Shown piece after piece: positions 10,510 to 24,185 of a stretch of 24,322 nt of DNA (position 1 is the first letter of the stretch; the number at the start of each line of letters is the position of its first letter). The notes under the pieces are model-generated. The model saw only the letters and a list, made by a program, of their open reading frames with translations, was not told the DNA's origin and ran no database searches. The translations under genes were made by a program, and so were the position numbers. The DNA is from a virus: positions 1 through 24,322 of IMG/VR virus record IMGVR_UViG_3300034023_000704; one strand, 5' to 3'.

Positions 10510-10682
10510 CCGTACCGGCTGACGTGATGGTCCGGTTGATAGAGCTGGAGCGTCTGTCCGCAGAGGCTGCCCAGCGGCGGGATGATGCAATCCAACTGGT
10601 GCTGCTCATGCTGGGCGCAGCGGCCGGCTCTCGGATTGCGCTCCAACCGGACGGTACGGGCCAGGTCCAGCCACCATCATGA
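10506..10682 (+). CDS. Small protein with a short hydrophobic helix
   Basis: This 58-residue frame starts with GTG overlapping the previous TGA (GTGA) and ends with TGA overlapping the next ATG. It has an amphipathic N-terminal helix (ADVMVRLIELERLSAEAAQRRDD) and then a short hydrophobic stretch (IQLVLLMLGAAAGSRI) that could be a single membrane segment. In tail-end regions such genes can be holin-like, but the segment is short and no lysis gene is nearby. Function is unknown. Confidence 0.55.
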   Translation: MTVPADVMVRLIELERLSAEAAQRRDDAIQLVLLMLGAAAGSRIALQPDGTGQVQPPS

Positions 10683-11524
10683 CCTACACGCTGCACCGTC
10701 TCAACGATGTCGTGCTGCGGATCGAGGCCCGCGCTCGACTTGACTGGCAGCAGTGGTTTCTGGCCGCATCGGATGTCCACCTGGACAATCCGCATTGCGA
10801 CCGGGGGCTCCTGCGTGCGCATCTCGACGAGGCGGTGCAGCGTGACGCTGGCATCCTGCTGCTGGGCGACACGCTCGACCTGATGCAAGGTCGTGATGAC
10901 CCGCGGCGAGACGGCAGCTCGATGAAGCCTCAGTACCTGCTCGATTACGTGGATTCGGTTCTGGAGGATGCAGCCAAGTTTTTCACCCCCTACCGAGACC
11001 GCATCGTGATGATCAGCGAGGGCAACCACGAGTCAGCGGTTCGCAAGCGGCTCGGCACCAACCCAACCAAGCGGCTGGCGGATGCGCTTGGTGTTCAGTG
11101 CATGCCGTATTCCGGCTGGCTGATGTTCCGGCTCACGCGTGACGAGGGGCGGCGTGGCACGCACAATACCATCCGCTGCTACTACCACCACGGCTCAGGT
11201 GGCGGTGGGCCTGTCACTCGTGGCGTCATCCAGACCAACCGGCGGTCTGCGATGGTGGATGGCGCACACATCCTGCTCAGCGGGCACATCCACGAGTCGT
11301 GGACGGTCTGGACCCCTCGGGCAGCAGTCAACAGCCAAGGCACGCCGCACATTATCGACCAGCTGCACGTGTCGACCGGCACATACAAAAACGAGTATCA
11401 GGGCGGCGAGGGGTATCACGTCGAAAAAGAGCGGCCGCCCAAAGCTCTGGGCGGCACCTGGGTGCGTCTGTGGTTTGACGGACGAGCGCACGGCAGCATC
11501 CGCTACGAGGCGACACGGGCCTGA
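10679..11524 (+). CDS. Calcineurin-like metallophosphoesterase
   Basis: This 281-residue protein has the full motif set of two-metal phosphoesterases: SDVH at 31-34, GDTLD at 63-67, GNHE at 115-118, a HHG pair near 170 and GHIHE at 212-216. The family cleaves phosphomonoesters or phosphodiesters, and phage members often act on nucleic acids or nucleotides, so the substrate here is not determined. The N-terminus precedes the first motif by about 30 residues, so the frame is complete. It is the last plus-strand gene and converges with the minus operon. Confidence 0.9.
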   Translation: MTYTLHRLNDVVLRIEARARLDWQQWFLAASDVHLDNPHCDRGLLRAHLDEAVQRDAGILLLGDTLDLMQGRDDPRRDGSSMKPQYLLDYVDSVLEDAAKFFTPYRDRIVMISEGNHESAVRKRLGTNPTKRLADALGVQCMPYSGWLMFRLTRDEGRRGTHNTIRCYYHHGSGGGGPVTRGVIQTNRRSAMVDGAHILLSGHIHESWTVWTPRAAVNSQGTPHIIDQLHVSTGTYKNEYQGGEGYHVEKERPPKALGGTWVRLWFDGRAHGSIRYEATRA

Positions 11525-11551
11525 CATCTGACGGGGGACGCAGATTGACTT

Positions 11552-11608
11552 GCCTCGTCAGTGCTGGGCGGTCATCCCCAGCAGACGCCTCGGGGGAGGC
11601 GTTTCGGC
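11552..11608 (-). ncRNA. Type II hammerhead ribozyme, copy 1
   Basis: Read on the minus strand: GCC, GAAA, stem III CGCCTC/GAGGCG with loop CCCC, cleavage triplet GUC, stem I TGCTGGG/CCCAGCA with an 8-nt loop, CUGACGA, GGC. GCC and GGC close stem II, giving the circularly permuted type II form. All core residues are canonical. Predicted cleavage is between 11584 and 11583. It follows the last minus-strand gene by four bases and marks the 3' end of the operon, facing the convergent phosphoesterase gene. Confidence 0.92.
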
Positions 11609-11612
11609 TGTG

Positions 11613-12187: not shown

Positions 12188-13204
12188 TCAGCCATTGGTG
12201 TTGGCCAGTATTGTGCCGGTCAGATTTGCACCGGTCTGGATTGCATAGGTTAGGTCGGCACCGGTCAGATTTGCATAGGTCAGGTCGGCACCGGACAGGT
12301 TTGCGCCGGTCAGCTTGGCATAAGTTAGGCTTGCACTGACCATTTGGGCCCCCGCCAGGTTTGCACGGGTCATGTTTGCGCCAGGTAGTCTGGCGCTGAT
12401 CAGATTTGCACTGCTCAGCTTGGCCCCGGCCAAGTCGGCAAAGCCTACGCTGGCGTTGGCCAAGTTGGCACCGGTCAGGTCAGCCATACGCAGATTAGCA
12501 TACGTCAGGTTTGCTTTGGTCAGGTCGGCGCCGGCCAGATTAGCCCCGGGCAATTCGGCCCCACCAAGGGCGGCGTTGGTCAGGTTGGCACCGGCCAGGC
12601 TAGACACCTCCAAGTCGGCACCGGCCAGGTCTGCACCGGTCAGATTGGCCCCGGTCAGGTTGACTTGGCGCAGGTAGGCGTTGGTCAGGTTTGCGCCGGT
12701 CAGGGTGGCCCCAGACATATTGGCGTTGGGCGAGTCGACCCAGCTCAAATTTGCGCCGGTCAGGTTTGCGCCGGTCAGATTGGTCATGCGCATTTTTGCA
12801 TTGGGCAGCCCGGCATTGGTCAGGTTTGCACTGGTCAGGTCTGCATCAGTCAGCGTGGCGTCGACCAGCTTGGCGTCGACCAGATTCGCATTTCGCAGAC
12901 TGGCTCCGGTCAGGTCGGCATTGACCAGGCTGGCTCCCTGGAGGATGGCCTGGTCGAAGAGCGCTCCCTGCATGCAGCACTCACCCAGGCTTGCACCGGT
13001 CAGGTCTGCACCAGTCAGGTTTGCGCCAGGCATGATGGCCCCACCAAGGGTGGCGTTGGTTAGGTTGGCTTTGGACAGGTTTGCACCGGTCAGGTTTGTG
13101 CCAGTCAAGTTGACACCGACCAGATTTGCACCGGCTAGATTTGCGCCGGCTAAGTTTTTTTTGGCCAGGTTTGCCCCGGCCAGTTTTGAGACATCAATAA
13201 TCAT
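12188..13204 (-). CDS. Pentapeptide-repeat protein
   Basis: After a short start (MIIDVSKL) nearly all of the 338 residues are A(N/D)LxG-type pentapeptides in register, over 60 in all. The family folds into a right-handed square beta helix. Bacterial members of the Qnr/MfpA type mimic DNA and protect or inhibit gyrase. Whether this protein does so is unknown, and phages could use such a mimic against host enzymes. The usual capping helix or loop insertions of Qnr are not evident. The start overlaps the previous stop by 11 bases. The DNA itself is a 15-nt-periodic tandem array, prone to length change. Confidence 0.9.
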   Translation of the reverse strand: MIIDVSKLAGANLAKKNLAGANLAGANLVGVNLTGTNLTGANLSKANLTNATLGGAIMPGANLTGADLTGASLGECCMQGALFDQAILQGASLVNADLTGASLRNANLVDAKLVDATLTDADLTSANLTNAGLPNAKMRMTNLTGANLTGANLSWVDSPNANMSGATLTGANLTNAYLRQVNLTGANLTGADLAGADLEVSSLAGANLTNAALGGAELPGANLAGADLTKANLTYANLRMADLTGANLANASVGFADLAGAKLSSANLISARLPGANMTRANLAGAQMVSASLTYAKLTGANLSGADLTYANLTGADLTYAIQTGANLTGTILANTNG

Positions 13205-13433
13205 TTTGCACCTCGGGTCGTTTCCGCAGGGTCTCTCGATAATCGATTCCCTGCACAAGGCGAACGCTGCGGTCCTCCTCAAAGGCGTCCCCCTGGGAGT
13301 ACCAGATCCACCGTGGGCCGGCCTTGACGTAGGTGGGCTCCTGCTTGTACCAGCAGGCGCTCATGTAGTCTGCTGCCCACCATTTCGCCCAGGACGGGGC
13401 ATCTGACCAGTCGGGTTGGATGTTCTCTGTCAC
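13194..13433 (-). CDS. DWSDAP-family small protein, copy 2
   Basis: This 79-residue protein starts with GTG overlapping the previous TGA (GTGA), after GGAGGAG. A longer frame from an ATG at 13469 has no ribosome-binding site, and alignment with the upstream paralogue supports the GTG. Shared blocks are DWSDAPxWAxWWAxD near the N-terminus, a Trp/Tyr-rich middle, a W(I/V) strand and a C-terminal RETLRKRP-like segment. The Trp content is very high. No function is known to me, and the family looks like a small cytoplasmic phage protein. Confidence 0.7.
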   Translation of the reverse strand: MTENIQPDWSDAPSWAKWWAADYMSACWYKQEPTYVKAGPRWIWYSQGDAFEEDRSVRLVQGIDYRETLRKRPEVQNDY

Positions 13434-13672: not shown

Positions 13673-13690
13673 TGTGTCTCCTCCCTGTCT

Positions 13691-13758
13691 CCCCTCTGCA
13701 TTCTCCGGGCTTGGGACCGGCACCCAGCTCGTACTGGGATGGCTGCATTAGAGTGGGG
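13691..13758 (-). ncRNA. Twister ribozyme, copy 1
   Basis: On the minus strand the conserved twister segments occur in order: CUCUAAUGCAGCC, a variable hairpin CCCAG/CUGGG, CCCAAGCCCGG, then AUGCAGAGGGG. CUCU pairs with AGAG to form P1, extended by CCC/GGG around one bulged A. Expected cleavage is at the U-A step between 13750 and 13749. A 6-bp hairpin, GGGGGC/GCCCCC (13755-13770), precedes it and also precedes the other two copies. It lies between the stop at 13780 and the start at 13672. Confidence 0.9.
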
Positions 13759-14456: not shown

Positions 14457-14470
14457 GCACCTCCCTGTCT

Positions 14471-14537
14471 CCCCTCTGCATTTTCCGGCTTGGGACGGGC
14501 GCCTGACGTTTGTCAGGTCGGCTGCATTAGAGTGGGG
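14471..14537 (-). ncRNA. Twister ribozyme, copy 2
   Basis: It has the same ordered segments as copy 1 on the minus strand: CUCUAAUGCAGCCG, a hairpin CCUGAC/GUCAGG, CCCAAGCCGG, AUGCAGAGGGG. The variable hairpin differs in sequence from copy 1 but keeps its pairing. Expected cleavage is at U-A between 14529 and 14528. The GC hairpin at 14534-14549 precedes it. It separates the gene ending at 14557 from the one starting at 14456. Confidence 0.92.
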
Positions 14538-14910: not shown

Positions 14911-14940
14911 TGTGTTCCCCCTGTACGTTTGTTGTGACCT

Positions 14941-14995
14941 GCCACATCAGTACCGGGCGGTCATCCCCGGCAGACGCCCCGAGGGGCGTTTCGGC
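14941..14995 (-). ncRNA. Type II hammerhead ribozyme, copy 2 (core variant)
   Basis: On the minus strand: GCC, GAAA, stem III built from CGCCC/GGGCG with a short loop, GUC, stem I TGCCGGG/CCCGGTA (one G-U pair), then CUGAUGU, GGC. The layout equals copy 1, but the core residue usually written A9 is U. Stem bases co-vary with the other copies. Predicted cleavage is between 14973 and 14972. It lies five bases after the stop of the 15000-15167 gene. Confidence 0.82.
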
Positions 14996-14999
14996 TGTG

Positions 15000-15167: not shown

Positions 15168-15188
15168 TGTTTGTTCTCCTTGCGTTCT

Positions 15189-15255
15189 CCCCTCTGCATT
15201 CTCCGGCTTGGGACGGTCGCCCGGCTCATGCCAGGTCGGCTGCATTAGAGAGGGG
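15189..15255 (-). ncRNA. Twister ribozyme, copy 3
   Basis: Minus-strand segments are CUCUAAUGCAGCCG, hairpin CCUGG/CCGGG (with a U-G pair), GUCCCAAGCCGG and AUGCAGAGGGG. P1 is CUCU/AGAG with further pairs. Expected cleavage is between 15247 and 15246. A GC hairpin at 15252-15265 precedes it, as in the other copies. It sits between the genes at 15272-15601 and 15000-15167. Confidence 0.92.
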
Positions 15256-15621: not shown

Positions 15622-15684
15622 GCGGGGCCGCCCCGCTTGCTTGACTGATATACATAGTATAGCAAACTCGGGGCATGATGTCAA
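15622..15684 (-). promoter_or_regulatory. Sigma70 promoter 3 with operator and 5' hairpin
   Basis: On the minus strand a TTGACA -35 box (15679-15684) and a TATACT -10 box (15656-15661) are 17 nt apart. The -10 box lies inside a palindrome (15647-15663, GATATAC/GTATAGC around three bases). The early transcript then forms the hairpin GCGGGG/CCCCGC (15622-15636). An A/T-rich segment upstream of the -35 is shared with promoter 2. Confidence 0.88.
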
Positions 15685-15695
15685 TCTGTCGAACC

Positions 15696-16142
15696 TTAAA
15701 TTTTCGAGCGATTCGCCAGCATTCGCCGGGCGTCGTGCTCGGTGTAGTACGAGCCGTCGGCGTCCACCAGAACCCAGCCGTCGGTGGGGTGATACTCGAT
15801 CGTGTGGCCGGGGAGGTGCTGGCTCAGGGCTCGCACCCTGTGGGGCGGGTTGAGCAGGACCTGCCGAGCGAAGACGGCACCGACGCTCAGCACCACGACA
15901 CCAGCCACGATCACGACGGCGACCAGAGCGTAGGTCAGGGCCAGCCTGGCGGTGGATGCACCCTCGGATGCAATCCACATGCGCGCTTCGGCGTCGATGC
16001 GGGCCCGCTCGGTCAACGCCGTCTCCCGGAGCTGGGTGCGCTCGGTGCGGCCCGCCTCGATCATCTCGACGACGCTGGCGGCCGACGGCAGCATGATGAT
16101 GGCGATACAGACGATGACTGCCAGCAAAATGACTTTGGTCAT
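15696..16142 (-). CDS. Membrane protein with two transmembrane segments
   Basis: This 148-residue protein starts at an ATG overlapping the previous TGA (ATGA). Residues 4-25 and 67-91 are hydrophobic. Between them lies a charged, helical 40-residue segment (RTERTQLRETALTERARIDAEARMW), probably coiled-coil. The C-terminal part carries a small beta motif (TIEYHPTDGWVLVDADGSYYTEHDA). Its last codons (LANRSKI) lie in a stretch shared with promoter 2, so this C-terminus may derive from promoter-cassette duplication. It closes the membrane-protein block. Confidence 0.7.
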   Translation of the reverse strand: MTKVILLAVIVCIAIIMLPSAASVVEMIEAGRTERTQLRETALTERARIDAEARMWIASEGASTARLALTYALVAVVIVAGVVVLSVGAVFARQVLLNPPHRVRALSQHLPGHTIEYHPTDGWVLVDADGSYYTEHDARRMLANRSKI

Positions 16143-16405
16143 TTGCGCCTCCGTGCCCGCTGGGGAGCAGGGAACAGTATCCGCCTCAGCCATCGCCCGA
16201 CATCCGGCATGTCGCCTGGCGGGCACTTGACGATCACGATGATTGCGCCGATGGGGGCCAGCACAACCAGCGTCCATGCCATTGCGCTGCCGGGACCCTC
16301 ACCCAGCAGGGCGGTGGGAATGCCTGTCAGCTCGTCGTATCTGGCCGCCGCCAGACATACCCCCGAGATTGTTGCCATCAATCCTGCGTATCCGATCCAC
16401 GTCAT
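16139..16405 (-). CDS. Small membrane protein
   Basis: This 88-residue protein has two hydrophobic segments (about 4-21 and 42-60) and a strongly basic C-terminus (RWLRRILFPAPQRARRRK) that should lie in the cytoplasm. It starts at an ATG after GAGAGGGGAGCAAA, in a purine-rich leader with repeated GGAG-like sites. The stop overlaps the next start (ATGA). Function is unknown. The size and two-segment topology are holin-like, but the setting is an early operon without lysis genes. Confidence 0.65.
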   Translation of the reverse strand: MTWIGYAGLMATISGVCLAAARYDELTGIPTALLGEGPGSAMAWTLVVLAPIGAIIVIVKCPPGDMPDVGRWLRRILFPAPQRARRRK

Positions 16406-16454
16406 TTTGCTCCCCTCTCCTACTACCCTCTCCTACCCTGATGTGTGCCAGTTT

Positions 16455-16522
16455 CTAGTCCCACCTCTGGACTAGGTTAGTTAGTCAGTTGACTGACTGA
16501 TAGTCTCAGTCATAGTCAGTCA
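16455..16522 (-). ncRNA. Unrecognised structured intergenic element
   Basis: The 122-nt gap between genes holds two perfect hairpins: CTAGTCC/GGACTAG (16455-16475, 7-nt loop) and TGACTGACT/AGTCAGTCA (16490-16522, 15-nt loop). Repeated TGACT words lie between and within them. No hammerhead or twister core is present and no U-tract follows. It could be an RNA processing site, an mRNA leader structure or a repeated protein-binding site in DNA. Confidence 0.5.
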
Positions 16523-16527
16523 GCCGA

Positions 16528-17262
16528 CTAGACATTTTGACCGCAATATCGGGTCAGGTGGCTCAGCGCTGCCGCCTGATCCGTGACGTTCAAAACCGTT
16601 GCCCGCCCCTCCGTGCGCCAGATGCCGCTCTCGGTCACCAGCTGGTGTGCAGCTCGCCAGCGTCCCTGTGGCCAGCCATGCTCGCTCCCCATAAAGTCCT
16701 TGGCAAACCGCTGCCCCGTGGTTGCCAACTTGACCAGCATGCGCGCGTCCTCGTAGACGTTGTCGCCTGCAAATTCTTCCGCCGGCCGCTCCGGCGCAAC
16801 GTAGCTGGGTGTCGCCGATTGGTGCGCACGGTGCAACAGCATCGTCGCTTTCTGCTCAGCCTCCTGCGCCCGGGCGAGCTGCGCCGCCAATTGCGCAATT
16901 TGAGTCTCAGCCTCTTCCAACTCGGCTTCCGCCTGCTCGGCAATCTCACGCAGGTGCATCATCTCCCCGGCCTGCTCTCGCTCGTCGAGCGAGGTGCGCC
17001 ACATCATCAGCAGGCCAAACGAGATGCCGCCGAGCGTGACGGCCAGCACCAACCAGATCAGGATGTCGCCGGGCCAGGGCGATGCAACGATGTGCAACAG
17101 GTGCCCCAAGATTTGCGCAGCAACACGCACGCAGATGACGCCCACGGTGACCCCGATCCACATGCCGAAATTATCCTGCCATGTGGCCGTGACCTGCGCA
17201 CGCGTTGGCACCGACCGCGGGGGGGCGGGCGGTGCAACGGCCGGGATAAAGTTACTCGCCAA
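16528..17262 (-). CDS. Membrane-anchored coiled-coil protein with a winged-helix-like end
   Basis: No ATG with a ribosome-binding site exists. The frame is open upstream and a TTG at 17262 overlaps the preceding gene's stop, giving 244 residues, so the start is uncertain. It has a Pro-rich N-terminus, transmembrane segments at about 34-60 and 66-87, and an Ala/Glu/Gln coiled coil at 92-145. A C-terminal domain at 163-240 (ARMLVKLATTG, RWRAAHQLVTESGIWRTEG, VLNVTDQAAALSHL) has a winged-helix-like pattern. The same order, membrane anchor then coiled coil then DNA-binding end, occurs in phi29 p16.7, which tethers replicating DNA to the membrane. That parallel is architectural only. Confidence 0.65.
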   Translation of the reverse strand: MASNFIPAVAPPAPPRSVPTRAQVTATWQDNFGMWIGVTVGVICVRVAAQILGHLLHIVASPWPGDILIWLVLAVTLGGISFGLLMMWRTSLDEREQAGEMMHLREIAEQAEAELEEAETQIAQLAAQLARAQEAEQKATMLLHRAHQSATPSYVAPERPAEEFAGDNVYEDARMLVKLATTGQRFAKDFMGSEHGWPQGRWRAAHQLVTESGIWRTEGRATVLNVTDQAAALSHLTRYCGQNV

Positions 17263-17347
17263 ACGGCACCGTCCAGATTGCGACAACCATTGCAACTGCG
17301 GTCACGGTGCCGACGACCGCTGCAATCCACTCCAGTGCATCGATCAT
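17252..17347 (-). CDS. 31-residue single-pass membrane protein
   Basis: This short frame starts at an ATG after AGGAGGCAGC, overlapping the previous TGA (ATGA). It reads MIDALEWIAAVVGTVTAVAMVVAIWTVPFGE, one hydrophobic helix flanked by acidic ends. The stop overlaps the start of the next gene. The strong ribosome-binding site and double overlap support expression. It may be a small partner of the two larger membrane proteins on either side. Confidence 0.65.
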   Translation of the reverse strand: MIDALEWIAAVVGTVTAVAMVVAIWTVPFGE

Positions 17348-18006
17348 GCTGCCTCCTGTGCACGACGCACCCAGCTGCGCACGGTTGACGGATTTGCACC
17401 GAGCGCATCGACAATCTGCGCAACGCTCATGCCCTCTGCGTGCATCTGCAACGCATGCGTGCGCACGTCGATGGTCGGCGGTGCAACATCGACCGGCTCA
17501 GCAACCTGCACCGGCTGCACGCGTGCACGTGTGCGCTGCACAGGTTCATCGTGCGCAACCGGCTCAGCCGGCGGGGCGGATAGCGCTGCAACCGGCTCTT
17601 GCGTCGACTCGTGCGTCGGCTCGTGCGCTGCATCCACAATCAGGTGGCTGTAGAGTGCAATCGCAAAAGGCAACGCAACGCTGATGAGCCAGGCCGGCGC
17701 CGCATCGATGGTAAGCAGATTTACATCGTGCAGAGCGTAGTAGGCCAGATTGATGCAGATGCTGGCCACGGCGAATACGTAACTCTCGATGTTCCGCCGC
17801 TGCACGACAAACAGCAACACTGCCAGCTCCAGCGCAATTGCATAACTGTAGCTGTGCAGCGTTGCGCCCAGTCCTTCCCCGCCGACGGCCAGGCGGAACA
17901 CGTCCGCTGCGTGCGGCAGCTGCGCAACCAGTGCGATCACCAGCACTGCCAGCGTTGCAACGGGGGAGCGCAGAAACGAGATTGCGCGAGTGCCAGGATT
18001 ATGCAC
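17344..18006 (-). CDS. Four-helix membrane protein with cytoplasmic helix-turn-helix
   Basis: This 220-residue protein starts at a GTG after GGGAGGCGAGC, overlapping the preceding stop by eight bases. Hydrophobic segments lie at about 15-33, 50-68, 75-92 and 103-124. A Pro/Ala/Glu/Val linker (127-170) leads to HALQMHAEGMSVAQIVDALGANPSTVRSWVRRAQ, a helix-turn-helix of the resolvase/HTH_23 type with the recognition helix NPSTVRSWVRR. A membrane protein with an own DNA-binding tail is unusual in a phage. It could sense the membrane, anchor DNA or regulate locally. The combination is seen directly and the purpose is inferred. Confidence 0.75.
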   Translation of the reverse strand: MHNPGTRAISFLRSPVATLAVLVIALVAQLPHAADVFRLAVGGEGLGATLHSYSYAIALELAVLLFVVQRRNIESYVFAVASICINLAYYALHDVNLLTIDAAPAWLISVALPFAIALYSHLIVDAAHEPTHESTQEPVAALSAPPAEPVAHDEPVQRTRARVQPVQVAEPVDVAPPTIDVRTHALQMHAEGMSVAQIVDALGANPSTVRSWVRRAQEAA

Positions 18007-18229
18007 GCTCGCCTCCCTTAGTCTCAAGTGCGGCGAGCACCTGGGAGAACAGTTGCACCATCTCCGTGCGCAACTGACGCACCTCGGCCAGTGCATCCGA
18101 CGCTGGCGGGTTGGCCTGTTGCATGTCAAACTGCCGTTGCAGGTTCAACATATGCATTTTGTACCAATCCGCCTCAGCTTTCATTTCTTTCAATTGTCTG
18201 TTCAGCTCTGCGATGTGTTCGTCAGTCAT
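17999..18229 (-). CDS. Coiled-coil protein, copy 2
   Basis: This 76-residue protein starts MTDEHIAELNRQLKEMKAEADWYKMHMLNLQRQFDM with clear heptads, then a Pro-containing break and a second helix (LAEVRQLRTEMVQLFSQVLAALE). It starts inside the previous gene's end (ATGACTGA). Like its upstream neighbour it begins MTDE, so the two may be diverged relatives or partners. It sits among membrane proteins and has no membrane segment itself, suggesting a soluble adaptor. Confidence 0.7.
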   Translation of the reverse strand: MTDEHIAELNRQLKEMKAEADWYKMHMLNLQRQFDMQQANPPASDALAEVRQLRTEMVQLFSQVLAALETKGGERA

Positions 18230-18584
18230 TTCCGTGCTCCCGTGTGTTGTACATGCGCCATAGTTTTACAAAATTTGCCCGCAACGCATCGATGGTGCGC
18301 TGCGCCTGTACGAGCTCGATGCGTGTGCGCTCGGCTCGTGCCCGCTCCACCTCCGTGCGTTGCGTCTGCGCCTGCACCTGAGCGTGAAGCATGCTGTTTT
18401 CGTCCACCGCATTTTGGTTGCTCGCGCGCAACACATTGATGCGTGCGTTCAGGCGTTCGATCTCTGCACGCAGCGCCTCAACTGGTTGCACGGCCAGGCT
18501 CGGGCTGAGCGCAGGTGCATTGTGCAGTGCATCAATCTCGCTGCGCACGATTTCTCGTATCGCGTTCAACATTTCGTCCGTCAT
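18222..18584 (-). CDS. Coiled-coil protein, copy 1
   Basis: This 120-residue protein starts at an ATG after GAGAGGAATGC. It begins MTDEMLNAIREIVRSEIDAL, then from about residue 35 to 105 it is a long coiled coil (ALRAEIERLNARINVLRASNQN, HAQVQAQTQRTEVERARAERTRIELV). No enzymatic motif was found. Its leader is the structured 133-nt gap. Coupled downstream to another coiled-coil gene and two membrane/DNA-binding genes, it may help assemble them. Confidence 0.7.
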   Translation of the reverse strand: MTDEMLNAIREIVRSEIDALHNAPALSPSLAVQPVEALRAEIERLNARINVLRASNQNAVDENSMLHAQVQAQTQRTEVERARAERTRIELVQAQRTIDALRANFVKLWRMYNTREHGND

Positions 18585-18616
18585 GCATTCCTCTCAATCG
18601 GTTAAAGTGACGGCTT

Positions 18617-18703
18617 CCCGGGAGTATGTGCGCAACACCTCCCGGGCATTGACTCGGCTCTACTGTCGGCACAAGAGTATGCCGTGCGCACTAACTGTGC
18701 CGA
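18617..18703 (-). ncRNA. Unrecognised structured intergenic element with possible kissing loops
   Basis: The gap 18585-18717 contains two perfect 8-bp hairpins, TCGGCACA/TGTGCCGA (18666-18703) and CCCGGGAG/CTCCCGGG (18617-18646). Their loops carry GTGCGCAC and TTGCGCAC, which can pair with each other. CTCGGC at the first hairpin can alternatively pair with GCCGAG between the hairpins, so two exclusive folds exist. No known ribozyme core was recognised. It may be a leader structure, a switch or an unknown RNA class. Confidence 0.5.
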
Positions 18704-18717
18704 GCGCCAGATGATTG

Positions 18718-18813
18718 TTATGGTACAGGTACGGTCGACATCATGCCGGCGAGCGCCAGGACGATGATGACGATTGTGCTGGCGATCAGCGAAAAGCAGC
18801 TGAATTTATCCAC
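18718..18813 (-). CDS. 31-residue single-pass membrane protein
   Basis: It starts with GTG after GAGGGGGTGCGCC, overlapping the previous stop. The peptide DKFSCFSLIASTIVIIVLALAGMMSTVPVP has one hydrophobic helix with a Cys just before it. The overlap and the ribosome-binding site support expression. Function is unknown. It is one of three tiny membrane proteins in this block. Confidence 0.62.
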   Translation of the reverse strand: MDKFSCFSLIASTIVIIVLALAGMMSTVPVP

Positions 18814-18985
18814 GGCGCACCCCCTCGTATCGCTCCCGGCTGTGGCATGCGCAGGTTGCATCGTTGCAAATGTGCAACGTGTGGCGCACGTCGCTGTTGC
18901 AGCAGCACGGTTGCGATCGTGGGCACTCGCTGCGGCACCGCTCGCTGTCACGGCGAGTTGGCTCCGGCATGATAATCGCCTTCAT
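18806..18985 (-). CDS. Small cysteine-rich protein
   Basis: This 59-residue protein starts at an ATG after GGAGGGGCGT. It carries nine Cys and several His in a compact middle (CRSEC, PCCCN, HTLHIC, CACH), a density typical of small zinc-binding folds. An Arg-rich start and end suggest nucleic-acid or protein contact. No named zinc-ribbon pattern fits exactly. It overlaps the next gene by eight bases. Since the surrounding DNA is rich in TGC, part of the Cys content may reflect composition, but the ribosome-binding site and overlap favour a real gene. Confidence 0.55.
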   Translation of the reverse strand: MKAIIMPEPTRRDSERCRSECPRSQPCCCNSDVRHTLHICNDATCACHSRERYEGVRRG

Positions 18986-19025
18986 ACGCCCCTCCGTGTC
19001 GGGGGCTTGATTCCTGAGCCGCCCA

Positions 19026-19136
19026 TTACAGACCCCCTTCCGCCATCATGCCGACGGCCAGCAGTCCAACGACCCCGACGATGCCCAGAATAATCATCAC
19101 GTAGAACAAACCCGAATAGCCGTTACCCTCGTCCAT
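19026..19136 (-). CDS. 36-residue single-pass membrane protein
   Basis: It starts at an ATG after AGGAGGGCAAC, nine bases downstream of the preceding stop. The sequence opens MDEGNGYSG and continues as one hydrophobic helix (LFYVMIILGIVGVVGLLAV) to GMMAEGGL. A further ATG overlaps its stop (TAATG) and would encode a 13-residue leader-like peptide before the Cys-rich gene. Function is unknown. Confidence 0.65.
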   Translation of the reverse strand: MDEGNGYSGLFYVMIILGIVGVVGLLAVGMMAEGGL

Positions 19137-19582: not shown

Positions 19583-20479
19583 TTAGTGCGACAGCTCGGT
19601 AGCTGTCGCCATGTCGATGTTGGCCGCAGCGAGTTTGGCCATTTGCTCAGCGTGGAATGCACTGAGCGCTTGGATTTTGTTCCCGGCGGTTAACTTGCCG
19701 AACCGGGTGGTGACCAGCCGCTGGAACGATGATCGAGCGGTTTCGATGTCCGTTGACGCACCGATATTGACAGCCCACTCGTATGCGTCTCGGGGTCCCT
19801 CCCAAAACGACACCTCGGCTGGCACATCGGACATGTCGACAGGCTCAGCCGGGGCAGAGGCTGGTGCAGAGGCTGGTGCAGAGGTTGGTGCAGAGGTTGG
19901 TGCAGAGGTTGGTGCCGATGCCAGCGGCTTGGTGGCGGCTGGCAGCTCGATGACGTTGCCTTCGCCATCGACCACGGCCCCCAGCTCCTCGGGCACGTAG
20001 ACGGCGTTGCCCGAGAACAAATCCGGGCAGTACCAGCGGGCAGCGTTGCTGTTTGCCCGAGCAAACAGCATGTTGCGGGGGAACGCTTGCATGTTTTTCG
20101 TGCCCGCTGCTCGGGCGTCGGCAGCGGTAAAACGAGATTTTCCGATCAATTCGAGCTTGCCGTTGATGCGCTCAAAAATCTCAATCTCGCACGCCTCGTT
20201 GGAGAGCTCCAGCACCCGGTAGTCGTATTTTGGGGACGCTTTGATCGCCGCGGCGATCAGGTTTGCGCTTATCGCCGGCCGGCCGTTGATGATATGAATC
20301 CCCTGCACCGCAGCGAACGGGCCGATGCCCAGCTCACGGCCGGCCATAATTTTTGTGGCCACCTGGGCGATGGCCTGCTCGCTTATCCCCTTGGCGTCGA
20401 AATAACCCGACGCCGCCAGCAAACGTGCGATCCCCGTGAGTTCGGCCAGGTCGTTCTGGCGGGGCATGATGTCGTTCAT
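19583..20479 (-). CDS. RecT-like single-strand annealing protein
   Basis: This 298-residue protein starts at an ATG overlapping the previous TGA, after GGGAGGCACA. The N-terminal 180 residues contain the block MAGRELGIGPFAAVQGIHIINGRPAISANLIAAAIKAS, then FTAADARAAGTKNMQAFPRNMLFARANSNAARWYCPDLF and YVPEELGAVVDGEGNV, shared by phage proteins that are sometimes annotated as RecT-type recombinases. A Ser/Ala/Pro linker from 12-nt repeats follows. A C-terminal 75-residue helical region (DAYEWAVNIGAS to the end) may bind a partner. The activity, annealing single strands during replication and recombination, is inferred from family. Confidence 0.72.
   Translation of the reverse strand: MNDIMPRQNDLAELTGIARLLAASGYFDAKGISEQAIAQVATKIMAGRELGIGPFAAVQGIHIINGRPAISANLIAAAIKASPKYDYRVLELSNEACEIEIFERINGKLELIGKSRFTAADARAAGTKNMQAFPRNMLFARANSNAARWYCPDLFSGNAVYVPEELGAVVDGEGNVIELPAATKPLASAPTSAPTSAPTSAPASAPASAPAEPVDMSDVPAEVSFWEGPRDAYEWAVNIGASTDIETARSSFQRLVTTRFGKLTAGNKIQALSAFHAEQMAKLAAANIDMATATELSH
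19851..19922. repeat. 12-nt tandem repeat inside the RecT-like gene
   Basis: Six imperfect units of GGTGCAGAGGYT (plus strand) encode on the minus strand a run of Ser-Ala-Pro with an alternating Ala/Thr. This is the flexible linker between the two domains. Three adjacent units are identical, so recent unit gain or loss is likely and linker length may vary between relatives. Confidence 0.9.
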
Positions 20480-21326: not shown

Positions 21327-21352
21327 CAAAACCTCCTGTGTTTGCGTGACCT

Positions 21353-21409
21353 GCCACATCAGTGCTGGGTGGTCATCCCCAGCAGACGCCTCGGGGGAGG
21401 CGTTTCGGC
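21353..21409 (-). ncRNA. Type II hammerhead ribozyme, copy 3 (core variant)
   Basis: On the minus strand: GCC, GAAA, CGCCTC/GAGGCG with loop CCCC, GUC, stem I TGCTGGG/CCCAGCA with an 8-nt loop, CUGAUGU, GGC. As in copy 2 the A9 position is U. The first base pair of stem II lies next to the upstream stop (TAGCC), so the ribozyme begins inside the stop codon's last base. Predicted cleavage is between 21385 and 21384. Confidence 0.82.
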
Positions 21410-21816
21410 TAGATTCCTCGGAGGCCGATGCACCCCCTTGGCTGTCCGTCCGGGCCCCGCAGCAATTCGCCCGGGGCGTAGACGTCATGGCGGTCTGGCT
21501 GTTTCTTGCCCACCGCATCGAGCACCATGCCCGACACGATGTACACGACCCCGTCTTTGGACTCGGGGAGGCCTGTGACCTCCCCGAATACGGTCCGCAC
21601 GGTCGGGAACCCGTACTCCGCCGACAGGGCGGATGCCTTCGGGGATGTCGTTGCCGACACCCGAGCAATAGAGCCCGAGGGCTCAACCTCCACAGATGAC
21701 TCGGCAGCGTCTGCCGAGGCGAAAATAACGATCCGGTGGGGGGTCAAATTGACGAGCTTGATATGCTCGCCATTGCTTTCCCTTTCCCACCACATCATCA
21801 AACTGCTTGCGTCCAT
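21409..21816 (-). CDS. NLTxHRI-family phage protein, copy 1
   Basis: This 135-residue protein starts at an ATG after AGGAGGAACGTA. It shares with the gene at 14076-14456 the order LVNLTPHRIVIF, a Ser/Ala-rich middle, TVFGEVTGLPE, YIVSGMVLDAV, DVYAPGELLRGPDGQPRGCIGL. This copy has an N-terminal addition with a WW pair. The conserved C-terminal block GQPxGCIGL with one Cys may be functional. The family is common in phages as I recall, without a role I can name. It is framed by hammerheads on both sides. Confidence 0.75.
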   Translation of the reverse strand: MDASSLMMWWERESNGEHIKLVNLTPHRIVIFASADAAESSVEVEPSGSIARVSATTSPKASALSAEYGFPTVRTVFGEVTGLPESKDGVVYIVSGMVLDAVGKKQPDRHDVYAPGELLRGPDGQPRGCIGLRGI

Positions 21817-21843
21817 TACGTTCCTCCTGTAGTTGCGTGACCT

Positions 21844-21902
21844 GCCTCGTCAGTGCTGGGCGGTCAGTCCCAGCAGACGCCATCTGGGGATGGCGTTTCG
21901 GC
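21844..21902 (-). ncRNA. Type II hammerhead ribozyme, copy 4
   Basis: On the minus strand: GCC, GAAA, stem III CGCCATC/GATGGCG with loop CCCA, GUC, stem I TGCTGGG/CCCAGCA with loop ACTGACCG, CUGACGA, GGC. Stem III is one pair longer and differs in sequence from the others while keeping all pairs. The core is canonical. Predicted cleavage is between 21876 and 21875. It lies between the genes at 21909-22052 and 21409-21816. Confidence 0.92.
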
Positions 21903-21908
21903 TGTTGG

Positions 21909-22074: not shown

Positions 22075-22142
22075 GGGGGCTTGCGCCCCCGCTTGCCGTC
22101 GACTGATATACATAGTATAGCGCACATTGAGCATGGTGTCAA
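22075..22142 (-). promoter_or_regulatory. Sigma70 promoter 2 with operator and GNRA hairpin leader
   Basis: On the minus strand TTGACA (22137-22142) and TATACT (22114-22119) are 17 nt apart, a near-ideal promoter. The operator palindrome GATATAC/GTATAGC (22105-22121) overlaps the -10 box. The transcript then folds GGGGGC/GCCCCC around a GCAA tetraloop (22075-22090). The upstream 40 nt (to about 22180) match promoter 3 closely. Confidence 0.9.
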
Positions 22143-22250: not shown

Positions 22251-23771
22251 CTACTCCTGCACGAAATAGAGGTCTGACTTGGCCCGGGTCAGGCCAACGT
22301 ACCGCAGATTCTGCTCCTGCTCAGCCTGCCAGGCCCGCATCCCCGGCCGCCCCAGCGACATCTTGTCGGGCTCCAACACGAACACCCGGTCTGCTTCCAG
22401 CCCTTTGGCCCGGTGGATGCTGGACAGCCACACGCTGGCCCCCGCATCGGCGAACAGGGCGGTCAAACCGCTCTTGATGTCCGCCAGCGACTGGATGTTT
22501 GGTTGGCCCTCCAGAAACGCCTGGAGGCATGCGATGCTGTCGTCCAGCGTCTGGATGGCCGTCTCCGAGTGTGGCTTCTGGGCCAGCTCTGCCCGTCTGT
22601 TCTCCCCGTAGCGCTCCATCCGCTGCGTAAACCCGGTGCGCCAGGGCTGGTCCTGCCCAAGCTTGAGCTTGTCGATGCTGACGGCCAACTTGGCCAGGCT
22701 GTCGCCCACGTTGCGCCCACGGATTCGGGCCTGGATGCCAGCGCCGATCAGCCGCAGGGCAGCGCCCACCAGCGGGGCGTTGCGCCGGCAGATGATCAGG
22801 TCCCCGGCGTGGGGCATGCTGGAGAATTCCTCTTTCGTGACTTTCAGGACCCGGCCTTCCGGGGCGTCCTTCCGGGCCTCGATGTGGGGCACGATACCCT
22901 GGGCCAGACGCAGGTGGCTGGTCGGGCACCGGTAGCAAACCGACAGTGGCAACTCCACCGCACCGGTCCGCTCGACCAGATTTGCGAATGCCCGGTTGTC
23001 GGCACCCGCAAAACCCTGAATTGCCTGCGCCGGATCTCCGACGGCGATGATGCGCTCGCCGGCGGCGATTACCAGTGCGAGCTGCGCAGCGCTCAGGTCC
23101 TGCGCCTCGTCCACCAGGACGGTGCCAAACCGCTGGGGGGCGATTCGCAGAGCGTACGGCAGGTAGAGCATGTCCGTGAAATCGATTTTGCCACTGCTGC
23201 GGAACTCTTGGATCCCCTCCGAGACGACCCGGGTCGACAAGGACACAACCCGGTCGTACACCTGCCCATACGACCACGGGCCGTCCGGGTCAATTTCGCT
23301 GAGCTCCTCGACCGCCTCAGCAATCTGCGCCGAGATGGCGTGATGGGAGATGAGCTCCCCGACGCTGTCTGAATCGTTCAGGCTGGTCAGCGTCAACCGG
23401 GCCAGGTCGACCAGGCGGCTGACCGAGCGCTTGAACGCTGCACTTCGCCCGACCATTGTGCGGTTCAGGAGCGCATCGATGATGTCGGCGTGCTTGTACT
23501 CCGCCATGTTCAGGCGTCGGGTCTGGCGGCGCAGCGCCTGATACCCGAGCGAGTGGATTGTCATCGCCCGGACGTTGCTGGGCAGGCGGCGCTCCAGCTC
23601 GCCGACGATATGCTTGTTGAATGCCAGGAAGGCCACATCGCCTTCCAGAAGCCGAGCGGCTTCGACGATTGTGGTCGTCTTGCCACTGCCAGCCACGGCG
23701 TTGATGGCCAGGTTGTCGCTCGTGTTTGCGACGGCGTTGAAAATGGCGTTTTGGTAGGTTGACCAGTTCAT
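22251..23771 (-). CDS. UvrD/Rep-type superfamily 1 DNA helicase
   Basis: This 506-residue protein starts at ATG 23771 after AGGAGAGCAAC. A longer frame upstream runs through hammerhead copy 5 and is rejected. Motifs in order: Q-motif region STYQNAIF near residue 4, Walker A AGSGKTT near 26, TIHSLGYQAL near 71, DEAQD near 221, GDPAQAIQGFAGA near 246, YRCP near 281, HRAKGLE near 450 and VGLTRAK near 491. All ATPase motifs are intact. It is shorter than cellular UvrD (about 720) and lacks the long accessory subdomains, as in other phage helicases. It should unwind DNA 3' to 5' in phage replication or recombination. Confidence 0.93.
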   Translation of the reverse strand: MNWSTYQNAIFNAVANTSDNLAINAVAGSGKTTTIVEAARLLEGDVAFLAFNKHIVGELERRLPSNVRAMTIHSLGYQALRRQTRRLNMAEYKHADIIDALLNRTMVGRSAAFKRSVSRLVDLARLTLTSLNDSDSVGELISHHAISAQIAEAVEELSEIDPDGPWSYGQVYDRVVSLSTRVVSEGIQEFRSSGKIDFTDMLYLPYALRIAPQRFGTVLVDEAQDLSAAQLALVIAAGERIIAVGDPAQAIQGFAGADNRAFANLVERTGAVELPLSVCYRCPTSHLRLAQGIVPHIEARKDAPEGRVLKVTKEEFSSMPHAGDLIICRRNAPLVGAALRLIGAGIQARIRGRNVGDSLAKLAVSIDKLKLGQDQPWRTGFTQRMERYGENRRAELAQKPHSETAIQTLDDSIACLQAFLEGQPNIQSLADIKSGLTALFADAGASVWLSSIHRAKGLEADRVFVLEPDKMSLGRPGMRAWQAEQEQNLRYVGLTRAKSDLYFVQE

Positions 23772-23791
23772 GTTGCTCTCCTGTGTGACTT

Positions 23792-23848
23792 GCCTCGTCA
23801 GTGCCAGATAGTCAGCTCTGGCAGACACCTCGGGGGAGGCGTTTCGGC
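23792..23848 (-). ncRNA. Type II hammerhead ribozyme, copy 5
   Basis: On the minus strand: GCC, GAAA, stem III CGCCTC/GAGGTG (one G-U pair), loop CCCC, GUC, stem I TGCCAGA/TCTGGCA with loop GCTGACTA, CUGACGA, GGC. Stem I differs at several positions from the other copies with compensating changes. The core is canonical. Predicted cleavage is between 23824 and 23823. It lies nine bases after the upstream stop and about 20 bases before the helicase start. Confidence 0.92.
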
Positions 23849-23857
23849 TCAGGATGA

Positions 23858-24119: not shown

Positions 24120-24185
24120 GGGCTATTCGCCCGTGACTGTCTTGACTGATATACATAGTATATCACTCTGGGGGTGTAATGCCAA
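24120..24185 (-). promoter_or_regulatory. Sigma70 promoter 1 with perfect operator palindrome
   Basis: On the minus strand TTGGCA (24180-24185) and TATACT (24157-24162) are 17 nt apart. The operator GATATAC-ATA-GTATATC (24148-24164) is a perfect palindrome over the -10 box, whereas the other two promoters carry one mismatch. The transcript begins with the hairpin GGGC/GCCC (24120-24132). Confidence 0.88.

What the first reader, a model, noticed from the sequence alone, without database searches (positions are those of the whole stretch)
15696..19136. Block of membrane, coiled-coil and DNA-binding proteins
Ten consecutive genes include two larger membrane proteins with DNA-binding-like C-termini, two smaller membrane proteins, three tiny single-pass proteins, two coiled-coil proteins and a Cys-rich protein, many translationally coupled. 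The order anchor, coiled coil, DNA-binding end resembles phi29 p16.7. This could be a membrane-attached organiser for phage DNA or a superinfection/defence device. I know of no described system with this gene set.
Basis: partly seen in the sequence, partly recalled or inferred. Interest (0 to 1): 0.7.

Follow-up and report, generated by a model that had tools for sequence, protein, structure and literature searches.

The report
Phage membrane and DNA-binding gene block
A group of ten small phage genes, two of which make membrane proteins that carry a DNA-binding domain inside the cell, is kept together in two related phages and may fasten phage DNA to the cell membrane, although no experiment shows this yet.

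Summary
Ten genes lie head to tail on the minus strand at 19136-15696: three tiny one-pass proteins, a Cys-rich protein, two coiled-coil proteins, two larger membrane proteins with C-terminal DNA-binding folds (g6: four TM helices plus HTH_23; g8: two TM helices, coiled coil, winged helix) and two smaller two-TM proteins. One relative, a 45-kb phage contig, keeps the same order behind recT, with purifying selection on every gene compared (dN/dS about 0.14-0.45). Tail genes and most neighbouring early genes differ between the two phages, so the block is a retained unit. No relative was found in phage, plasmid or bacterial genome collections; more distant phages examined lack it. The families appear undescribed.

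Best reading (inferred, about 0.4): an early, membrane-anchored module that holds or organises phage DNA. It works like phi29 p16.7 or RocS but belongs to neither family. Membrane-tethered regulation and superinfection exclusion remain open. A main lysis role is unlikely, because the relative has its own holin elsewhere.

In passing: the early strand carries eight predicted self-cleaving ribozymes (five type II hammerheads, three twister-P1), with none inside recT or the block.

The parts
19583..20479 (-). recT: RecT-like ssDNA annealing protein, 298 aa; lies directly upstream of the block in the relative, and one gene (gA) upstream here
   Evidence: phrog_561 4e-22; 64-70% identity in L005
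19146..19538 (-). gA: 130 aa, weakly like the C-terminus of RecE-like exonucleases; present here, absent from the relative, so not part of the conserved core
   Evidence: phrog_434 3.8e-8; no match in G001
19026..19136 (-). g1: 36-aa single-pass membrane protein
   Evidence: TM 10-28; 58% identical in L005, dN/dS about 0.25
18806..18985 (-). g2: 59-aa Cys/His-rich protein, possibly zinc-binding
   Evidence: conserved pattern SERC-x3-CPR-x3-C-x-C-x2-DVRHTLHIC-x4-CACHSRERYEG; no Pfam or PHROG match
18718..18813 (-). g3: 31-aa single-pass membrane protein, GTG start overlapping the end of g2
   Evidence: TM 4-22; 66% identical in L005
18585..18717 (-). structured g3-g4 gap: hairpin CCCGGGAG-GTGTTGCGCACATA-CTCCCGGG inside a predicted multi-stem RNA
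   Evidence: inverted repeat in both phages; 5 compensatory pairs in a two-sequence RNAalifold consensus; no Rfam match
18222..18584 (-). g4: 120-aa soluble coiled-coil protein
   Evidence: weak coiled-coil profile matches only; matches the C-terminal part of the single L005 protein, 37%, E 6e-19
17999..18229 (-). g5: 76-aa coiled-coil protein
17344..18006 (-). g6: 220 aa, four TM helices, Pro/Glu-rich linker, C-terminal HTH on the cytoplasmic side (predicted)
   Evidence: HTH_23 6.1e-10, residues 177-217; HTH pLDDT 82-87, TM part poorly modelled; loop charges fit N-in/C-in; 72-74% identical in L005
17252..17347 (-). g7: 31-aa single-pass membrane protein, ATGA-coupled to g6 and overlapping g8
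   Evidence: TM 8-26; 45% identical in L005
16528..17262 (-). g8: 244 aa, two TM helices, long coiled-coil-like helix, C-terminal winged helix
   Evidence: AF2 pLDDT about 75-86 for residues 169-240, order H-H-H-E-E-H; VIA-align Z 5-7 to winged-helix proteins such as BusR, GntR regulators, RTP and FtsK gamma; 77% identical in L005
16463..16530 (-). g8-g9 gap element: inverted repeat of TGACT units, TAGTCAGTTGACTGACT-N15-AGTCAGTCAGCCGACTA; candidate operator, tether site or RNA hairpin
   Evidence: contains 36 identical bases, the longest identical run of the block alignment; inverted repeat in both phages; TGACTGACT found nowhere else in either phage, and the 24-base core in no viral contig besides the relative
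16139..16405 (-). g9: 88-aa two-TM protein with a strongly basic C-terminal tail (9 K/R, 2 D/E)
15696..16142 (-). g10: 148-aa two-TM protein with a charged, highly conserved helix between the TM helices and a 55-residue C-terminal domain
   Evidence: TM 4-22 and 73-91; 75% identical in L005; no Pfam match
15656..15684 (-). sigma-70-like promoter TTGACA-N17-TATACT directly after g10; marks the downstream end of the unit
   Evidence: same position in L005 (TTGACT-N17-TATACT)

Best explanation
The block is an early-expressed module, made as one transcript behind recT, that builds a membrane-attached assembly on phage DNA. Shown from sequence: a conserved gene unit; several membrane proteins; two membrane proteins with C-terminal DNA-binding folds. 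Inferred: g6 and g8 sit in the inner membrane with HTH and winged-helix domains in the cytoplasm; g8 pairs through its coiled coil; g4, g5 and the tiny membrane proteins help oligomerisation; g9 adds a basic tail. Together they would hold replicating or recombining phage DNA at the membrane, perhaps through the TGACT inverted repeat inside the block. It would work like phi29 p16.7/p1 or RocS without being related to them.
For: Block conserved in order and under purifying selection. The unit is retained although the tail genes and most flanking early genes differ between the two phages. It lies behind recT in both, with a primase-like gene in the same early region of the relative. HTH in g6 and winged helix in g8. 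Loop charges put both DNA-binding ends in the cytoplasm. Anchor, coiled coil, DNA-binding order in g8. A unique conserved inverted repeat inside the block is a possible binding site. The module is bounded by ribozymes and a promoter but not interrupted by them, which fits one polycistronic message.
Against: No DNA binding or membrane localisation has been measured. The winged helix is a moderate-confidence model from two sequences, and its fold matches are middling (Z about 7, Foldseek E 0.1), so only the fold class can be claimed. The repeat sits in a gene gap where an operator or an RNA hairpin would also sit. More distant phages with a recT-type gene lack the block, so phage replication does not generally need it. 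Only two phages carry it, and they are related.
Confidence: 0.4

Rival explanations
1. Superinfection exclusion or host-membrane takeover: the small membrane proteins change the host envelope or block incoming phage DNA, and the DNA-binding membrane proteins act on invading DNA or on host genes.
For: Many small membrane proteins in an early unit; the block is restricted to one phage group, as accessory modules are.
Against: No credible match in PADLOC; no receptor-blocking or lipoprotein signature seen; two DNA-binding domains and the place behind recT are not needed for it.
Confidence: 0.22
2. Membrane-tethered gene regulation: g6 and g8 are membrane-bound transcription regulators that bind the conserved elements in the g8-g9 gap (and perhaps g3-g4) and tune the block or the early-late switch.
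For: The two conserved non-coding elements lie just upstream of g9 and g4, where operators are expected; the g8 winged helix resembles transcription factors; g6 has a classic HTH.
Against: No sensor domain (predicted outer loops of g6 and g8 are 11-18 residues); the promoter-like site within the repeat is on the opposite strand and scores only 9 of 12; the g3-g4 element looks more like RNA.
Confidence: 0.2
3. Lysis cassette: the one- and two-TM proteins are holins, antiholins or spanins.
For: Sizes and TM counts fit holins; g8 gave a weak Rz-like spanin match, E 0.002, over its TM and coiled-coil region.
Against: The relative has its own holin elsewhere, on the other strand (phrog_6918 5.5e-9); no endolysin in the block; early operon behind recT; DNA-binding ends have no place in lysis.
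Confidence: 0.06
4. A loose collection of unrelated small early genes that happen to stay linked because the two phages share recent ancestry.
For: Only two phages are available and they are related (head genes 84-89% identical).
Against: Both flanks and the tail genes were exchanged while the block stayed whole; overlapping genes and a shared unit end at the same promoter.
Confidence: 0.12

Closest known systems
phi29 p16.7 (Phi-29_GP16_7, PF06720) and p1, membrane organisers of phage DNA replication
   Same: Early operon, membrane anchor, a coiled-coil stretch and a C-terminal DNA-binding end in g8; proposed role in holding phage replication at the membrane (PMC4974454).
   Different: No sequence or profile similarity; two TM helices in g8 and four in g6; predicted winged helix and HTH_23; ten genes rather than one or two.
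RocS of streptococci, and the related RacA and pSK1 Par
   Same: A winged helix joined to a coiled coil, and in RocS to the membrane; used for DNA segregation (PMC11500499).
   Different: In RocS the winged helix is N-terminal and a C-terminal amphipathic helix binds the membrane; in g8 the order is reversed and the anchor is two TM helices.
ToxR/CadC-type transmembrane transcription regulators
   Same: Membrane-bound protein with a cytoplasmic DNA-binding domain.
   Different: Those have an N-terminal winged helix, one TM helix and a periplasmic sensor domain (own knowledge; PMC5430869 abstract for CadC combining input and effector domains); g8 has a C-terminal winged helix and an 11-residue outer loop.
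DUF2637 (PF10935) membrane proteins
   Same: Multi-TM protein followed by a linker and a C-terminal segment (own recollection).
   Different: The family model finds nothing in the window even at E 10.

Membership tests
phi29 p16.7 family (PF06720) | Match to the PF06720 profile | tested here: not met
   p16.7 itself scores 1.7e-35; g2, g4, g5, g6, g8, g9 and g10 do not match at E up to 1 (tiny g1, g3 and g7 were not scanned against Pfam); hhalign probability 0.1-0.2% for the g8 and g6 profiles
phi29 p16.7 family (PF06720) | Single N-terminal TM anchor | tested here: not met
   g8 has two TM helices; I read four in g6 (three by the scan)
phi29 p16.7 family (PF06720) | Coiled coil followed by a C-terminal DNA-binding domain | tested here: met
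   g8 only, as architecture in a predicted model; no binding measured
phi29 p16.7 family (PF06720) | Binds ssDNA and terminal protein of a protein-primed genome | not testable with these tools
   Needs biochemistry
RocS/RacA/Par family | N-terminal winged helix, central coiled coil, C-terminal membrane helix or tail | tested here: not met
   Order reversed in g8
ToxR/CadC-like regulators | N-terminal winged helix, one TM helix, periplasmic sensor domain | tested here: not met
   C-terminal winged helix, two TM helices, 11-residue outer loop
Phage lysis cassette | Holin next to an endolysin in the late region | tested here: inconclusive
   Block is in the early strand behind recT without an endolysin, and the relative's holin is elsewhere; the lysis genes of this phage itself were not found in the fragment
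Known anti-phage defence systems (PADLOC-DB) | Credible match of any block protein to a PADLOC model | tested here: not met
   Only coiled-coil or HTH-level matches, E 0.002-0.02
DUF2637 membrane proteins | Match of g6 to PF10935 | tested here: not met
   No match in the window at E up to 10

The most novel reading that the evidence does not exclude
The block is a self-contained membrane-attached DNA tethering or partition device of a new kind for a tailed phage: two unrelated DNA-binding membrane proteins, their coiled-coil and tiny membrane partners, and a cis-acting TGACT inverted repeat that serves as its centromere-like site, all in one unit behind recT.
Probability: 0.13. Interest if true: 0.75.

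Novelty: new variant of a known kind. Interest (0 to 1): 0.42.

Why it matters
How tailed phages place their DNA and replication machinery inside the cell is known for very few phages, with phi29 the main case at the membrane. A compact, conserved ten-gene module with two different membrane-bound DNA-binding proteins would be a second, unrelated solution, and its candidate binding site makes it directly testable. If instead it is a superinfection or regulatory module, it is still a set of undescribed families. Without experiments the function stays open.

Tried and rejected
Homology to phi29 p16.7: rejected by Pfam and profile comparison. Main lysis cassette: made unlikely by the separate holin in the relative. 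DUF2637 for g6: no match. Known defence systems: no credible match. NCBIfam: only HTH or coiled-coil matches below cut-off. Wider distribution: g6 and g8 against phage and plasmid records found nothing beyond HTH-level matches, g10 against phages nothing; viral-contig scans with g8, g9 and g10 found only the one relative and with g6 alone none; genome-contig scans with g8 and g6 found none. These pattern scans reach close relatives mainly (the g6 scan missed the known relative), so distant homologues could be missed. Whether recT relatives carry the block: L007 and L023, and the related phage L025, do not in the stretches held. Fold search with g6: the TM part is not modelled well (pLDDT under 60), so its matches are uninformative. 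The g3-g4 and g8-g9 elements as known RNA families: no credible Rfam match. Host not identified: no tRNAs, and no block relative in bacterial genomes. Literature searches for a phage module of this kind returned nothing fitting; most subscription journals are not in that library.

Full report
What the window is. The 24,322-base window is a virus record in IMG/VR, probably a fragment. Tail genes run on the plus strand to about 10.5 kb, then a DNA repair exonuclease-like gene at 10679-11524. From there to the end the early genes run on the minus strand: small genes, the block, recT (phrog_561 4e-22), and a UvrD-like helicase at 22251-23828. No near-identical phage is in the public phage collection.

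The observation. Six of nine junctions overlap. Starts of g3 and g6 (GTG) and g8 (TTG) were chosen from overlaps and from agreement with the relative.

Is it real? A 45-kb phage contig, IMGVR_UViG_3300035670_012729 (L005; G001), carries the same genes in the same order directly behind recT. Protein identity is 77% (g8), 75% (g10), 72-74% (g6), 72% (g9), 58-66% (g1, g2, g3), 45% (g7) and 37% (g4). dN/dS lies between about 0.14 and 0.45 for every block gene compared, including those of 29-36 codons, so these are genuine genes. g5 has no separate counterpart: the relative has one longer protein whose N-terminal part matches g5 and whose C-terminal part matches g4. gA, between recT and g1, is missing from the relative.

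A retained unit. Between the two phages, head genes are 84-89% identical, the tail genes are mostly unrelated, and most early genes outside recT and the block have no counterpart or only a weak one. The block stayed whole while its neighbours changed. It ends at the same place: a strong promoter-like sequence follows g10 in both. More distant phages that share the exonuclease-like gene (about 40% identity) or a recT relative lack the block in the stretches held. No other relative turned up in phages, plasmids, bacterial genomes or the remaining viral contigs. These searches favour close relatives, so absence is not proven.

What the proteins look like. g6 ends in a helix-turn-helix (HTH_23, 6.1e-10, above the curated cut-off), modelled confidently; its TM part is modelled poorly. 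I read four TM helices from the sequence, of which the simple scan found three; loop charges fit both ends inside the cell. g8 is modelled as two TM helices, the second running into one long helix, and then a compact H-H-H-E-E-H domain at pLDDT about 75-86. The best structural matches are winged-helix proteins (BusR, GntR regulators, replication terminator protein, FtsK gamma; Z 5-7; Foldseek best E 0.1). Those values are middling and support the fold class, not a family. g9 ends in a basic tail; g10 has a conserved charged helix between its TM helices.

Non-coding elements. The longest identical run in the block alignment is 36 bases in the g8-g9 gap. Against an overall identity of 70% that is unlikely by chance (roughly 0.003 by a simple estimate of mine that treats columns as independent). 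It forms part of an inverted repeat of TGACT units present in both phages, found once in each and in no other viral contig. It could be an operator, a tether site or an RNA hairpin. The g3-g4 gap holds a conserved hairpin inside a predicted multi-stem RNA with five compensatory pairs, from only two sequences.

Mechanism. My best reading is a membrane-attached assembly on phage DNA, made early as one message behind recT. Shown: conserved unit, membrane proteins, two DNA-binding folds, place in the early operon. Inferred: cytoplasmic placement of the DNA-binding ends, g8 pairing through the coiled coil, use of the inverted repeat, and the tethering itself. Rivals are membrane-tethered regulation, which the position of the elements upstream of g4 and g9 fits equally well, superinfection exclusion, and a loose set of genes. 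Main lysis is unlikely because the relative carries a holin elsewhere.

Comparison. The resemblance to phi29 p16.7 is one of layout only. p16.7 itself matches PF06720 at 1.7e-35, the block proteins tested do not, and profile comparison gives nothing. RocS has the same three parts in reverse order (PMC11500499).

Unexpected. Rfam shows that the repeated intergenic sequences of the early strand are self-cleaving ribozymes: five type II hammerheads above the curated cut-off and three twister-P1 below it but with E 6e-7 to 2e-10. Near-identical contigs and, for twister-P1, the relative carry them too. None lies between 15251 and 21345, that is within recT, the block and its nearest neighbours, in line with a single uncut message there. 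Hammerhead and twister ribozymes are already reported to be enriched near phage-related genes and near each other (PMC10085705).

Verdict. Function rests on inference from architecture and context.

Noticed in passing
window 11544-11609, 14933-14996, 21345-21410, 21836-21903, 23784-23849 (minus strand): Five type II hammerhead ribozymes (42.7-54.6 bits, cut-off 37), mostly just upstream of small early genes; the core CUGANGA, GAAA and GUC are intact in the one displayed. Near-identical contigs L014 and L015 carry hammerheads too.
   Followed up: partly
window 13688-13754, 14468-14533, 15186-15251 (minus strand); L008 8912-8977 and 9611-9676; L009 2844-2910: Three twister-P1 ribozyme-like elements in the window and three in the relative (44-58 bits, below the cut-off of 67.2 but E 6e-7 to 1e-10), interspersed with hammerheads along the window's early strand. 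The recT-block stretch is free of ribozymes in both phages.
   Followed up: partly
window 15640-15684, 22098-22142, 24141-24185 (minus strand): Three copies of one promoter-like sequence, TTGACA-N17-TATACT followed by ATGTATATCAGTC, heading early transcription units.
   Followed up: partly
window 18585-18717 (minus strand): g3-g4 gap: conserved structured RNA candidate with five compensatory pairs between two phages and an invariant hairpin loop GTGTTGCGCACA; no Rfam match.
   Followed up: partly
window 17999-18584; L005 6809-7255: g4 and g5 correspond to the C- and N-terminal parts of one protein in the relative, in swapped order, which suggests duplication followed by partial loss.
   Followed up: partly
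window 12188-13282 (minus strand): Pentapeptide-repeat protein made almost wholly of A(N/D)L repeats, in the early strand; present in L015 (89%) but not in the relative G001.
   Followed up: no
window 10679-11524 (plus strand): DNA repair exonuclease-like metallophosphoesterase at the end of the tail genes, 84% identical in the relative and about 40% in other viral contigs.
   Followed up: partly
window 19854-19915: 12-base tandem repeat inside recT, giving an Ala-Pro/Ser-rich linker that the relative lacks.
   Followed up: no
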